Assembly: GCA_035998445.1 (NCBI GenBank)
Contig: DASYHQ010000023.1
Location: forward strand, 1 to 64,000
Direction: 5' to 3'
Origin: Tepidisphaeraceae bacterium
Lineage (GTDB): Bacteria; Planctomycetota; Phycisphaerae; Tepidisphaerales; Tepidisphaeraceae
DNA: 64,000 nucleotides
Made by a program: the position numbers and the translations under genes. Within the stretch, counting starts at the first letter, position 1. The number at the start of each line of letters is the position of its first letter. The notes under the pieces were generated by a model. The model saw only the letters and a list, made by a program, of their open reading frames with translations, ran no database searches and was not told the origin of the DNA. This document shows, one piece after another, positions 21,769 to 24,456 of the stretch.

Positions 21769-21788
21769 GCCGGCGTAGCTCAATTGGT
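21769..21788 (+). other. tRNA 5'-end-like fragment (20 nt)
   Basis: The 20 nt read like the acceptor and D-arm start of a bacterial tRNA (GCCGGCGTAGCTCAATTGGT, typical of tRNA-Thr). The match stops there: no anticodon arm, T-arm or acceptor complement follows. It may be a remnant of integration into a tRNA gene, or coincidence. Confidence 0.35.
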
Positions 21789-21814
21789 CGTCGCTCACGC
21801 AGATATCGCTGGCG

Positions 21815-22159
21815 CTAACCGCGCGGGAAGACGCGCACGTGAACCAGTTTCCCGTCATCGTCAAAGTCAGCCACGTGGACGCCGTCCTTCCCGTTGCGCG
21901 GCTCCACGTGCCACTCGGCGATCACGTGGCGCGGCCCGCTGGTGACGCGGTCGACGATGATCTGCTCGCCGCGCGACATCACGCCCTCGCACAGCTTCAC
22001 CATGCGGTTGCGTACATCCGCATACCCCTTTGCCGCCGTGCCCACGTTCGGGTTGTGGTAGACACCGTCACGGTTCCAGTTGGCCATGATGGCGTCCGGA
22101 TCGTACGCGTTCACGCCCGCAAAGGCGGCGAGGAGGGTGGATTCAAGAGACTCATTCAT
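21815..22159 (-). CDS. SnoaL-like / NTF2-fold protein, third gene of the ART cassette
   Basis: 114 residues with the SnoaL-like pattern: an N-terminal helix ('LLAAFAGVNAYDPDAIMANWNRDGVYHNP', read in parts), then alternating strands ending 'HVRVFPRG'. Members of this fold are isomerases, hydratases or non-enzymatic binding proteins; no activity can be assigned. Its ATG overlaps the stop of the preceding small gene (ATGA), which implies translational coupling. It could equally be an unrelated passenger of the cassette. Confidence 0.75.
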   Translation of the reverse strand: MNESLESTLLAAFAGVNAYDPDAIMANWNRDGVYHNPNVGTAAKGYADVRNRMVKLCEGVMSRGEQIIVDRVTSGPRHVIAEWHVEPRNGKDGVHVADFDDDGKLVHVRVFPRG

Positions 22160-22362
22160 TTGGTGTTTGTTTCGGTCACGGAGACCTTGTCTTTCCCCCA
22201 GGAGCGGTAGCGCTTGCTGAGCTTTCCGCTCTTCGTCAGCACACCAGAGGCCTTCATGGCGGCAGTGCGATCACCCGCGTGGGCGACCTTCAACGCGGCC
22301 TTCAACGCAGCGGGGGACCACGTTCGAAGCGGCGCGCTCACGATCGGCTTACTCTTTGCCAT
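22156..22362 (-). CDS. Small basic protein, candidate antitoxin or partner of the ART-like protein
   Basis: 68 residues from the ATG at 22362, which is preceded by AAAGGA at good spacing; an ATG at 22371 is the alternative. Strongly basic (Lys/Arg-rich) with a helix-forming middle ('AALKAALKVAHAGDRTAAMKASGVL', read in parts) and a 'KSGKLSKRYRSWGK' tail. It overlaps the 3' end of the ART-like gene by 14 nt and the start of the SnoaL gene by 4 nt. No family recognised. The size, charge and overlap fit a small partner of a toxin, but this is inference. Confidence 0.6.
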   Translation of the reverse strand: MAKSKPIVSAPLRTWSPAALKAALKVAHAGDRTAAMKASGVLTKSGKLSKRYRSWGKDKVSVTETNTK

Positions 22363-22936
22363 ACGTGCCATCCTTTCTCACGGACCAGACACCAATGATA
22401 TTCTTCGATTCCCGTACGCACAGCTGAATATGCGCGCCGTGAAAGATTCCGCTGCGGGACCACACGCGTTGTCGCGGCCCTGTCGGCACGAACACGGCCC
22501 GAACCGTCTCCACGTCGAACCCAGCCGATGCCAGATCAACGAACAGTTGATTGAACACCAAGCAGTCGAGATACTTGTGGTTGTTTGCGTTCTGCGGCAA
22601 CCGGAGGCCGCTCGCTTTGAAGTCGGCTGCCACCTTCTGATACTGCAGTTCGAGCAGTTCAGCGTTCTTCGGATCCAAGAGGTCGATGCATTGGCCCAAC
22701 CGCAACACTGCGCCCACTACGGCAGCTTCTTTGCCGTAGCGCCGTTCAGCCCACCACCATGCCTGCTGCGGCGCGTGCTCCCAGAAGTAGATGCCGTGTC
22801 CGAGCCAGTCATCGGTGTTCTCGCTGGGATCAAACACCCGGCCCCGAAGCAGGGATTCTACTGTCTTTCGACGCGTGCCATGAAAACCGATTGCCAACCG
22901 GTCATAGGCGGTCGGATTCACGGCAAATTCGGCCAT
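22349..22936 (-). CDS. ADP-ribosyltransferase-like protein (putative toxin)
   Basis: 195 residues, no signal peptide. The N-terminus has 'GFHGTRRKTVESLL' (H19) and then 'WLGHGIYFWEHAPQQAWWWA' (Y50, E53). Near the C-terminus 'HIQLCVRESKNIIGVW' follows (E176). This order (H in a first strand, GxYF, late Glu) matches the H-Y-E arrangement of PARP/diphtheria-type ADP-ribosyltransferases and the toxin-like proteins built on them. The assignment rests on motif layout alone. It begins 15 nt after the sucC stop and is followed by two overlapping genes, giving a cassette that may be a toxin-antitoxin or defence unit. Confidence 0.6.
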   Translation of the reverse strand: MAEFAVNPTAYDRLAIGFHGTRRKTVESLLRGRVFDPSENTDDWLGHGIYFWEHAPQQAWWWAERRYGKEAAVVGAVLRLGQCIDLLDPKNAELLELQYQKVAADFKASGLRLPQNANNHKYLDCLVFNQLFVDLASAGFDVETVRAVFVPTGPRQRVWSRSGIFHGAHIQLCVRESKNIIGVWSVRKDGTYGKE

Positions 22937-22951
22937 TGTTTCACGCGTTCC

Positions 22952-24127
22952 CTACGCCGCCTTCACCGCGGCGGTCACCTTCTGCGCCGCGTCGGTCAGA
23001 TCCGTCGCGGCGATGATCATCGGCAGGTCCTTGGCGGCGGCCTTCAGGATCTCGCGGGCCTTGTCGACGTTGGTGCCTTCTAGGCGGACGACGACGGGCA
23101 CCTTGAAGCCGATCTCCTTGCCGGCGGCCACCAGGGCCTCGGCGATCAAATCGCACTTGGCGATGCCGCCGAAGATGTTGACGAGGATGCCCTTCACGTT
23201 CGGGTCGGACAGGATGATGCCGAACGCCTCGCGGGCGCCCTCGGCCGTCACGCTGCCGCCGACGTCGAGGAAGTTGGCTGGCTCCTCGCCGTGCAGCTTG
23301 ATGATGTCCATCGTCGCCATTGCCAGGCCGGCGCCGTTGACGAGGCAGCCGATCGTGCCGTCGAGCGCGATGTAGTTCAGCGCGGCCTTGCGGGCGCGAA
23401 CGTCCAGCGGCTTCTCCTGGCTCTCGTCGACCATCGCTTCCAGGTCCTTATGGCGGAACATCGCGTTGTCGTCGAAGTTGAACTTCGCGTCCAGCGCGAC
23501 CAGCTGCCCGTCCTTCGTCACCACCAGCGGGTTGATCTCGGCGATCGAGGCGTCGGTCTGCACGAACGACTTGGCGAGGTTCAGGATGAGCTTCGTCACC
23601 TCGTTGGCCATCTTGCCGGTGAAGCCGAGCTTGTAGGCAACCTCGCGGGCCTGGTAGGCCTGCAGGCCGAGCGTGGGGTGAAGGGCTTCCTTGAAGACCT
23701 TCTCGGGATGATCCTTGGCAACCTCTTCGATCTCCACGCCGCCTTCGGCGCTGGCGATCAGCGTCGCGGTGCCGCGGCCACGGTCGATGGTGATGCCGAG
23801 GTAGTATTCCTTGGCGATGTCGACGCCGGGCGCCACCAGCAGCACGTTGACCGGCACGCCTTCGGGGCCGGTCTGGTTGCTGACCATGCGGTTGCTCAGC
23901 ATGAACTTGGCGGCATCGAACGCTTCATCTGCGGTGTTGCAGAGCTTCACGAAACCGGCCTTGCCGCGGCCGCCCGCGTACACCTGGGCCTTCACCACGC
24001 ACATCGCGCCGCCGAACTTCTTGAACGCCGCGCGGGCCTCTTCGGGGTTGTACACGACCTCGGCGGGGGGAACGGGAACGCCGGCTGCGGAAAGGATCTG
24101 ACGGGCCTGATATTCGTGGATCTTCAT
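22952..24127 (-). CDS. sucC: Succinate-CoA ligase (ADP-forming) subunit beta
   Basis: 391 residues. The ATG at 24127 gives the standard '[12 protein letters not shown]' start. An ATP-grasp domain comes first ('[19 protein letters not shown]', read in parts; '[24 protein letters not shown]', in parts). The CoA-ligase C-terminal domain ('[14 protein letters not shown]', '[10 protein letters not shown]') follows. With SucD it interconverts succinyl-CoA and succinate plus nucleotide triphosphate in the citric acid cycle. sucD, normally immediately downstream, is absent from the window; the ART cassette takes its place. Confidence 0.96.
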
Positions 24128-24194
24128 GGTGCCGACGAGCATAGCGGGGGGAGGGGGATTGGACAATTGCGGGAACTGGAGGGGAGGTGTTGGT

Positions 24195-24456
24195 CTTCTG
24201 TGGGACAGGCATTCTTGCCTGTCTCTCTTGGTCTCCCCCCGTATTGTCGAAATCAAAATCCCAAGTCCCAATGCCAAACAAATCACCAAGCACCAAATCC
24301 CAATCGTAAAGATGGCCTGCTCTGTGTCTGCCTCTGTGCTCTCTGTGCCCACTGTGGTTCAATCTCTTCTTCTTCGCGACTCCTTCGCGGCCTTCGCGTC
24401 CAGCTCATCTCTGAATACGGGGGGAGAGACAGGCAGGAATGCCTGTCCTACAGAAG
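24195..24456. repeat. Composite repeat with GACAGGCATTCCTGCCTGTC ends
   Basis: Arms 24195-24227 and 24424-24456 are inverted copies built around a GACAGGCA-TGCCTGTC hairpin. Between them, in reverse orientation, lie a GATTGGGATTTGG-rich unit (24251-24305) and an ACCACAG/AGAGCACAGAGG unit (about 24318-24360). The same parts occur in the same order at 51162-51430. It fills most of the sucC-nth gap and carries no gene. Confidence 0.75.

What the first reader, a model, noticed from the sequence alone, without database searches (positions are those of the whole stretch)
21769..22936. Three-gene overlapping cassette led by an ADP-ribosyltransferase-like protein
The ART-like protein (H19, GxYFWE at 48-53, late E176) is followed by a basic 68-residue protein that overlaps it by 14 nt. 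A SnoaL-fold protein comes next, starting within the stop codon of the small gene (ATGA). Tight overlaps imply coupled translation, as in toxin-antitoxin units. The order (large putative toxin, small basic partner, accessory fold) is not one I recognise. A tRNA-like 20-nt fragment lies at its downstream edge. What is seen: motifs, overlaps, sizes. What is inferred: ART activity and a TA or defence role.
Basis: partly seen in the sequence, partly recalled or inferred. Interest (0 to 1): 0.72.

Follow-up and report, generated by a model that had tools for sequence, protein, structure and literature searches.

The report
Chaperone-free CmdT-like toxin-antitoxin pair
Two overlapping bacterial genes look like an uncharacterised toxin-antitoxin pair: an enzyme related to one that tags messenger RNA to stop phage growth, next to a tiny partner protein that travels with it across bacteria and into an archaeon.

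Summary
The three overlapping minus-strand genes are real, but the conserved unit has two genes. Its nearest named kin is CmdT, the mRNA-modifying toxin of the anti-phage system CmdTAC. The second gene (68 aa) belongs to an unnamed small-protein family with a conserved motif. A profile seeded on ten plasmid copies finds it within 700 nt of the ART in 72 of 99 other distinct loci (iterated: 85 of 99, and nowhere else in 0.44 Mb of flanks). CmdTAC's SecB-like chaperone is absent; resemblance to the hypervariable CmdA was not found. Partner-upstream and partner-downstream loci separate by a single change on the tree; the window is toxin-first, as is CmdTAC. The SnoaL gene has no homologue in 60 relatives or beside any other ART held: a bystander. 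The tRNA-like 20-mer is real but no tRNA gene. Best reading: a widespread, chaperone-free CmdT-family toxin-antitoxin module with its own antitoxin family. Toxicity, neutralisation and RNA target are inferred, untested.

The parts
22349..22936 (-). Toxin candidate: ADP-ribosyltransferase of the CmdT kind, 195 aa
   Evidence: AF2 pLDDT 93.2, pTM 0.87; ART folds as top PDB matches; PD-T4-9_A (CmdT) profile E 1.2e-7, matched by 77 of 77 relatives
22880..22882 (-). H19, first residue of the proposed H-Y-Q triad
   Evidence: His in 77 of 77
22787..22789 (-). Y50, second residue of the triad, in WLGxGxYFWE
   Evidence: Tyr in 77 of 77
22424..22426 (-). Q171, third residue of the triad, in H-I-Q
   Evidence: Gln in 77 of 77; E176 is Glu in only 4 of 77
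22156..22362 (-). Antitoxin candidate: 68-aa partner (71 aa if the first ATG at 22371 is used), overlaps the toxin gene by 14 nt
   Evidence: Seed-only partner profile E 6.5e-5 (iterated profile, which includes this protein, 1.3e-10); partner within 700 nt of the ART in 95 of 109 loci; SD-like AAGGA before the ATG at 22362
21815..22159 (-). SnoaL_2 protein, 114 aa, overlaps the partner gene by 4 nt (ATGA); judged a bystander
   Evidence: PF12680 42.3 bits; no homologue in 60 relatives nor in the flanks of other ART loci; GC3 0.843 against 0.694 for the ART
22952..24220 (-). sucC-like gene (succinyl-CoA ligase beta; name by recall) whose stop lies 15 nt before the ART start: possible read-through transcription into the pair (inference)
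21769..21788 (+). 20-nt look-alike of a tRNA 5' end; not a tRNA gene and not shown to belong to the unit

Best explanation
22936-22156 is a two-gene, chaperone-free toxin-antitoxin module. The first protein is an H-Y-Q-type ADP-ribosyltransferase homologous to CmdT. The most likely mechanism is that, when free, it uses NAD+ to ADP-ribosylate a nucleic acid, most plausibly single-stranded mRNA as CmdT does, and so stops translation. The 68-aa partner, translated from a frame that overlaps the toxin's 3' end, binds the toxin, probably helps it fold as CmdA does for CmdT, and holds it inactive, perhaps through its conserved part (residues 32-59, helix, turn and helix in a weak model). The partner is presumably the labile component, and its loss after phage attack or loss of the locus would release the toxin. 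Shown: homology, invariant triad, ART fold prediction, close genetic pairing, one pair of sister genomes with partner kept and toxin absent, absence of a CmdC-like chaperone gene. Inferred: enzyme activity, RNA target, toxicity, binding, neutralisation, trigger.
For: (1) ART. (2) CmdT kinship: 77 of 77 relatives match PADLOC PD-T4-9_A and no other PADLOC profile at E <= 0.01; the window ART scores 30.0 bits, as high as the toxins of two loci with a CmdTAC chaperone (28.4 and 22.0 bits); blastp 30% over 110 aa, E 6e-15 for a single comparison, against one of them (L019). (3) Pairing: a profile made only from the annotated CDS upstream of the ART in ten plasmids hits within 700 nt of the ART in 72 of 99 other distinct loci, with 2 hits elsewhere; the iterated profile in 95 of 109 (85 of 99 without the seeds), with none elsewhere. 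(4) In 392 Planctomycetota genomes: ART in 16, partner (E <= 1e-4) in 14, both in 11, Fisher p 2e-15. (5) Tight junctions: partner stop and nearest toxin start codon within 15 nt in 57 of 62 partner-first loci (taking the nearest start favours small distances). (6) Between two genomes of one genus the toxin is absent and the partner kept in one, in collinear flanks 88-96% identical. (7) The ART is on plasmids (61 of 72,556 records; 35 typed conjugative) and patchy (3 of 26 genomes of the window's family); the window's ART has odd composition, GC3 0.69 against 0.86-0.90 for three neighbours.
Against: No activity, toxicity or rescue was tested. Foldseek gives no PDB match at E <= 1e-3 (best 2.2e-3) and VIA Z is only 7.6-8.8, middling values. 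The third triad residue is Q, not the E of diphtheria toxin and PARP1 (recalled). The partner model is weak (pLDDT 77, pTM 0.41) and matches no solved fold credibly, so binding is inferred from genetics alone. Four ARTs (L011, L062, L067, L108) lack a recognisable partner, and two or three genomes carry a partner without an ART. The RNA target is by analogy with CmdT at about 30% identity; E. coli CmdT itself was not available for the tree or the comparisons.
Confidence: 0.66

Rival explanations
1. One reading: ART, small protein and SnoaL-fold protein work as one unit.
For: ATGA overlap of the second and third genes.
Against: No SnoaL homologue at E <= 1e-3 in 60 relatives; phmmer of the SnoaL protein over the ORFs of the ART loci held finds only the window itself; SnoaL GC3 0.843 is near that of neighbouring genes, the ART and partner are lower (0.694, 0.768).
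Confidence: 0.04
2. A branch of CmdTAC without its chaperone: the partner is a diverged CmdA.
For: Toxin homologous to CmdT, same toxin-then-partner order, and CmdA is known to be highly variable (PMC11618068 section 34; PMC9519451 passages): here the small second ORFs of the two chaperone-bearing loci do not match each other either, so lack of similarity to the partner is weak evidence.
Against: Partner profile against the second ORF of L019: hhalign probability 0.3% (single-sequence target); the partner profile finds nothing in L019 and L036; none of 60 partners ends in AA or LAA whereas CmdA ends in LAA (PMC11618068) and the two second ORFs end in AA and VA; queries made from the two chaperones find no third chaperone beside any ART locus held (next best E 0.43).
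Confidence: 0.2
3. The partner is an activator, folding factor or active-site-completing cofactor (as HPF1 is for PARP1/2, recalled) rather than an antitoxin; the pair is an effector complex.
For: The third triad residue is Q; CmdA is needed for CmdT to fold and CmdT alone is not toxic (PMC11618068 section 6, PMC11445053).
Against: A partner is kept where the toxin is absent, which fits an antitoxin better; overlapping genes and plasmid carriage are usual for toxin-antitoxin units.
Confidence: 0.15
4. A toxin-antitoxin pair whose ART does not target mRNA but DNA, tRNA, a protein or NAD+ itself.
For: The VIA list mixes PARPs, diphtheria toxin and the toxin-antitoxin complexes NatRT, MbcTA and ParST; identity to the toxin of L019 is only 30% over 110 aa.
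Against: Only CmdT profiles among PADLOC models match; no RES or DarT family appears among the Pfam matches of 77 members at E <= 0.01.
Confidence: 0.3
5. Not a conflict module: an ART with a small regulator in ordinary physiology, placed in a sucC operon.
For: Starts 15 nt after the sucC stop.
Against: Patchy distribution, plasmid carriage and odd composition; none of 23 sucC loci of relatives (L125-L147) holds the ART.
Confidence: 0.05

Closest known systems
CmdTAC (PD-T4-9), toxin-antitoxin-chaperone anti-phage system, E. coli ECOR22 (PMC11618068, PMC9519451)
   Same: Homologous ART toxin with an H-Y-[E,D,Q] triad and a WLGxGxYF motif (shared with L019 and L036); toxin gene first, small second gene overlapping it (L019, L036).
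   Different: No SecB-like chaperone; partner without detectable similarity to the second ORF of L019 or L036, though those two do not resemble each other either; partner ends in TNTK, not LAA; the toxins of L019 and L036 split from the other 100 ARTs (support 98).
RES-Xre toxin-antitoxin modules (ParST, MbcTA, NatRT; class name recalled)
   Same: ART-fold toxin with a protein antitoxin; VIA Z 7.6-8.5.
   Different: Invariant H-Y-Q; no RES family among Pfam matches of 77 members; no Xre-type family among Pfam matches of 60 partners (one member matches an Mnd1 HTH model at 7e-4, taken as chance).
DarTG (DNA ADP-ribosyltransferase with macrodomain antitoxin; PMC5179494 seen in search listing only)
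   Same: ART toxin that modifies nucleic acid in a two-gene unit.
   Different: Partner is 48-80 aa in A3 without a recognised enzyme domain, not a macrodomain hydrolase; no DarT family among Pfam matches.
PARP and exotoxin A/diphtheria-type ARTs (H-Y-E, recalled)
   Same: H and Y motifs; weak Pfam PARP (12 of 77, best 5.1e-5) and Exotox-A_cataly (1 of 77) matches.
   Different: Third residue Q; single-domain protein with a dedicated small partner gene.
phrog_14664 (PHROGs, unknown function)
   Same: Matches the window ART over residues 16-149 at E 2.9e-15: phage members of the same family exist.
   Different: No function assigned in PHROGs; its members were not examined.

Membership tests
CmdTAC | CmdT-homologous ART toxin | tested here: met
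   PADLOC PD-T4-9_A E 1.2e-7, 30.0 bits, as high as the toxins of L019 and L036; blastp to L019 E 6e-15
CmdTAC | H-Y-[E,D,Q] triad | tested here: met
   H19, Y50, Q171 invariant, 77 of 77
CmdTAC | SecB-like chaperone CmdC as third gene | tested here: not met
   Third gene is SnoaL_2, no PADLOC PD-T4-9_C match; chaperones of L019 and L036 as queries: best in the whole window E 0.055, some 17 kb away, and no other ART locus at E < 0.4
CmdTAC | CmdA antitoxin by sequence | tested here: inconclusive
   Partner profile against the second ORF of L019, probability 0.3%; but the second ORFs of L019 and L036 do not match each other
CmdTAC | C-terminal LAA (ClpXP-type) tail on the antitoxin | tested here: not met
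   Window partner ends TNTK; 0 of 60 partners end in AA
CmdTAC | N6-adenine ADP-ribosylation of GA in single-stranded RNA | not testable with these tools
   Needs enzyme assay
Type II toxin-antitoxin module | Two adjacent genes, small partner protein, conserved linkage | tested here: met
   95 of 109 loci, two of them convergent; junctions
Type II toxin-antitoxin module | Toxicity of one product and neutralisation by the other | not testable with these tools
   Needs expression in E. coli
RES-domain toxins | RES domain by sequence | tested here: not met
   No RES family among Pfam matches of 77 members at E <= 0.01
RES-domain toxins | ART fold shared with NatRT, MbcTA, ParST toxins | tested here: inconclusive
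   VIA Z 7.6-8.5, tied with PARPs and diphtheria toxin
DarTG | DarT domain by sequence and macrodomain or NADAR partner | tested here: not met
   No DarT family among Pfam matches of 77 ARTs; no macrodomain or NADAR family among Pfam matches of 60 partners
PARP (PF00644) | Pfam PARP domain above the gathering score | tested here: not met
   Window ART 14.4 bits against a cut-off of 26.7
SnoaL_2 (PF12680), third ORF only | Pfam match above the gathering score | tested here: met
   42.3 bits against 27

The most novel reading that the evidence does not exclude
A large, unnamed superfamily of chaperone-free toxin-antitoxin modules pairs a CmdT-kind ADP-ribosyltransferase that poisons mRNA with a roughly 50-100-aa antitoxin of a new family (A-x3-L-x3-G-I-x-T-x2-G-x-L-x3-Y), seen here in eleven bacterial phyla and a methanogen. 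The chaperone-guarded, capsid-sensing CmdTAC would be one specialised branch of it. Gene order flipped once, from the CmdTAC-like toxin-first to partner-first.
Probability: 0.48. Interest if true: 0.72.

Novelty: new variant of a known kind. Interest (0 to 1): 0.6.

Why it matters
CmdTAC is among the first systems shown to ADP-ribosylate mRNA, and its trigger acts through a chaperone. If the same kind of toxin is also kept, and widely, by a tiny chaperone-free antitoxin, mRNA ADP-ribosylation may be a much commoner conflict weapon than counts of CmdTAC suggest, with a different way of being switched on. In the ten plasmid loci opened here both proteins are annotated as hypothetical, and the published CmdTAC surveys required a chaperone gene nearby (PMC11618068 section 34; PMC9519451 passages), so these pairs would not be called by that rule. 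The pair is compact and the triad gives ready-made inactive mutants, so the claim is directly testable in laboratory E. coli.

Tried and rejected
SnoaL as a third component: rejected. E176 as catalytic residue: rejected. tRNA relic as a mobile-element scar: the 20-mer has no second copy within two mismatches in the assembly, no Rfam match and no tRNA gene; left unexplained.

A toxin-antitoxin fusion in L009/L049 (one contig held twice): partner-like pieces sit in two frames, so I read it as a probable frameshift and did not use it as evidence.

Finding CmdT through SecB: tblastn of E. coli SecB in plasmids listed 28 records, annotated as SecB or not annotated at the place; none was opened. Chaperone-bearing CmdTAC loci were later found among loci already held: E. 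coli SecB by phmmer found L036 (E 0.017) and L019 (0.12), with L063 at 0.37, a weak test; PADLOC PD-T4-9_C confirmed the first two, and these two proteins as queries found no other. PADLOC CmdT profile in 294 Planctomycetota genomes: 4 with a match, all already in this ART family (one is the window's genome), and one control genome, Methanocaldococcus jannaschii.

Solved structures: single sequences and profiles gave only weak or chance matches. Fold search of the small protein: no credible match; ART against viral models: 4 at E <= 1e-3, phage polyvalent or uncharacterised proteins, not pursued. A GC3 ranking of window ORFs failed because the filter kept an antisense ORF over the ART, so only direct values are used. 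sucD downstream of sucC was looked for with a crude motif; nothing was concluded.

Rows dropped before counts: five duplicate loci (L008, L025, L049, L096, L106) before the 109; L021 and L022 gave no ART ORF; seven broken or partial ARTs (L007, L015, L020, L023, L024, L077, L110) before the 102-row tree; from A2, L077 and L110 (broken ART), L049 (the frameshift suspect) and L093 (copy of L106), so 77 of 81 possible rows; from A3, L106 (copy) and L113 (start unclear) of the 61 partners listed.

Loci without a partner by the final count (14 of 109): L009, L011, L015, L019, L024, L036, L040, L041, L062, L067, L082, L088, L102, L108. Of these L019 and L036 carry a CmdTAC chaperone, L015 is broken, L011/L062/L067/L108 form one group in the tree (support 84), L009, L024, L040, L041 and L082 show a partner by eye or below threshold, L088 and L102 only doubtfully. 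Partner hits without ART in the 392 genomes: 29 genomes match at E <= 0.01, 14 at E <= 1e-4; the weaker 15 I take as mostly chance, except G241, where a weak partner (0.004) adjoins an ART remnant.

Literature (open-licence PMC only, no bioRxiv): searches listed no paper whose title or abstract describes this pair; that is not proof of absence. Read: PMC11618068 (abstract, sections 6, 12, 34, first part of 41, passages), PMC11445053 (whole), PMC9519451, PMC13036486, PMC11833690, PMC9503650 (passages only). The last describes other ART toxin-antitoxin pairs (with Dmd, ARG) in phages. PMC5179494: listing only.

Full report
WHAT IS THERE. The three ORFs exist on the minus strand: 22936-22349 (195 aa), 22371 or 22362-22156 (71 or 68 aa) and 22159-21815 (114 aa). 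The first gene starts 15 nt after the stop of a sucC-like gene, so it may be read from that operon (inference).

THE FIRST GENE IS AN ADP-RIBOSYLTRANSFERASE OF THE CMDT KIND. AlphaFold2 on a 77-row alignment gives pLDDT 93.2 and pTM 0.87. Foldseek ranks 1-17 in the PDB are PARPs and NatRT (best E 2.2e-3, probability 0.98; none at E <= 1e-3). The 50 entries shown by VIA have Z 7.6-8.8 and include NatRT, MbcTA, PARPs, diphtheria toxin and ParST; the top row is a chain of a cyanophage pre-ejectosome. These are ART folds at middling scores. Across 77 sequences H19, W44, L45, G46, G48, Y50, F51, D124, H169 and Q171 are invariant. PADLOC's CmdT profiles (PD-T4-9_A) match 77 of 77 members (PDLC04069; 71 of 77 for PDLC04068), best 6.8e-10, and no other PADLOC profile does at E <= 0.01. 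In Pfam, PARP matches 12 of 77 (best 5.1e-5) and two other models one member each; in NCBIfam one model matches two members; so neither library has a family for it. PHROGs has one, phrog_14664 of unknown function (E 2.9e-15 for the window protein).

HOW WIDESPREAD. ART matches: 7 of 101 genomes in the relatives set, 17 (single sequence) or 16 (profile) of 392 Planctomycetota (each count includes the window's genome), 61 of 72,556 plasmid records, 35 of them typed conjugative, 4 of 50,697 phage records, and at least 543 confirmed stretches in GTDB species genomes, of which the best 80 were kept. By record titles and taxonomy the ARTs held come from Planctomycetota, Verrucomicrobiota, Lentisphaerota, Acidobacteriota, Pseudomonadota, Myxococcota, Bacteroidota, Bacillota, Elusimicrobiota, Campylobacterota, Cyanobacteriota and Armatimonadota, and one archaeon, Methanimicrococcus. 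The pair is seen in all of these but Armatimonadota, that is eleven bacterial phyla and the archaeon. In the ten plasmid loci opened, both genes of the pair are 'hypothetical protein'.

THE SECOND GENE IS ITS CONSTANT PARTNER. In the ten plasmid loci opened a 56-101-aa CDS lies directly upstream of the ART. A profile built from these ten alone, chosen by position and not by sequence, hits within 700 nt of the ART in 72 of 99 other distinct loci and in two places elsewhere; the iterated profile, which took in hits wherever they lay, hits in 95 of 109 (85 of 99 without the seeds) and nowhere else in the remaining flanks (650,878 minus 207,347 bases). The window's small protein scores E 6.5e-5 with the seed-only profile and 1.3e-10 with the iterated one, of which it is a member. 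The family consensus is about A-x3-L-x3-G-[IV]-x-[TD]-x2-G-x-L-x3-Y; G43 is kept in 59 of 60, G49 in 52, Y55 in 43. Charge is not conserved (36 basic, 11 acidic, 13 near neutral of 60). Pfam, NCBIfam and PADLOC have no family for it (only single-member chance matches). In 392 Planctomycetota genomes the ART is in 16, the partner (E <= 1e-4) in 14, both in 11; Fisher p 2e-15. Both profiles contain some Planctomycetota sequences and genomes are related, so the p value is only indicative.

ORDER AND HISTORY. The iterated count gives 65 loci with the partner upstream, 27 downstream, 2 convergent and 1 overlapping (L002, which reads as downstream). On a quick maximum-likelihood tree of 102 ARTs the upstream and downstream labels need one change; the 61 upstream rows are one side of a branch against the 28 downstream or convergent rows (support 92, not starred). 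The smallest starred set with the window has 12 rows: ten planctomycete ARTs, partner-downstream in the eight where a partner was labelled, plus L019 and L036. These last two split from the other 100 (support 98). Each has ART, an 81- or 84-aa ORF, then a SecB-like protein matching PD-T4-9_C at 4.6e-13 or 9.9e-18, so I take them as CmdTAC. With them as outgroup, toxin-first is the older order. Both have long branches (2.3-2.5) and E. coli CmdT is not in the tree, so this rooting is tentative. In 62 partner-first loci the partner stop and the nearest toxin start codon lie within 15 nt in 57, most often overlapping by 4 (9 loci) or 1 nt (8 loci).

NOT CMDTAC AS DEFINED. The window has no chaperone gene: the third ORF matches no PD-T4-9_C profile, and the two chaperones of L019 and L036 find nothing better than E 0.055 in the whole window and no other ART locus below E 0.4. 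The partner shows no similarity to the second ORF of L019 (hhalign probability 0.3%) and none of 60 partners has the AA or LAA end. But the second ORFs of L019 and L036 do not match each other either, so distant kinship of partner and CmdA is not excluded. It works like a CmdT toxin-antitoxin unit in toxin and order; a defining feature of CmdTAC, the chaperone, is not met.

THE THIRD GENE IS A BYSTANDER. The SnoaL_2 protein has no homologue at E <= 1e-3 in 60 relatives and none beside the other ART loci held. Its GC3 (0.843) is close to the neighbours sucC 0.896, P450 0.896 and nth 0.862, whereas the ART (0.694) and the partner (0.768) stand out: the pair looks imported, the SnoaL gene less so.

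A NATURAL CONTRAST. G131 and G248 belong to one genus. Their loci are collinear with 88-96% identity; G248 has partner and toxin, G131 has the partner without the toxin. I read this as loss of the toxin, as a toxin-antitoxin pair allows; the direction was not tested and it is one case.

MECHANISM. Shown: fold prediction, triad, kinship to CmdT, linkage, order. Inferred from CmdT (PMC11618068, PMC11445053): NAD+-dependent modification of single-stranded RNA, block of translation, need of the partner for folding, neutralisation by the partner. Open: the trigger. Without a chaperone it cannot sense capsid in the way of CmdTAC; a labile partner lost on host shut-off or plasmid loss is the simplest alternative. 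Defence and plasmid addiction are both compatible with the contexts seen: neighbours in plasmids include conjugation genes (L028, L031), an integrase, an FRG-domain gene and a second toxin-antitoxin pair (L029), an AbiEii-family gene (L030) and a DNA methyltransferase (L034); no control set was run, so this is anecdote.

VERDICT. Observation partly confirmed, interpretation partly supported. A new variant of a known kind: a chaperone-free CmdT-family toxin-antitoxin module with its own antitoxin family, widespread and, in the papers searched here, undescribed.

Noticed in passing
L019 (unnamed Planctomycetota genome G461) and L036 (phage record MT837118.1): CmdTAC-type loci (ART, small ORF, SecB-like) in a planctomycete and on a short phage-labelled contig.
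   Followed up: partly
L152 against L010/L096: Two genomes of one genus with collinear flanks: partner kept in both, toxin absent in one.
   Followed up: partly
L149 (G083): Partner gene without an ART in the 3.2 kb held, followed by a 148-aa ORF of unknown kind: perhaps an orphan antitoxin or one paired with another toxin.
   Followed up: no
L011, L062, L067, L108: Four ARTs from four phyla that group together (support 84) and have no recognisable partner; a different partner family may exist there.
   Followed up: no
L103 and L115: L103 holds two ART genes each with a partner; L115 has a second partner-like gene upstream of the first.
   Followed up: no
window 21769-21788: 20-nt look-alike of a tRNA 5' end (one mismatch to tRNA-Thr and tRNA-Gly 5' ends in three relatives) with no tRNA body and no second copy in the assembly.
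   Followed up: partly
control genomes: Methanocaldococcus jannaschii matches the CmdT profile PDLC04068.
   Followed up: no
PDB 9k3a_B residues 1419-1605: A segment of a cyanophage A4 pre-ejectosome protein is the top VIA match to the window ART, so probably an ART-like domain.
   Followed up: no
window 22952-24220 and loci L124-L147: sucC-like gene whose downstream neighbours vary between relatives; a crude sucD motif was seen after it in 1 of 24 loci, though some others have an ORF of similar size there.
   Followed up: no
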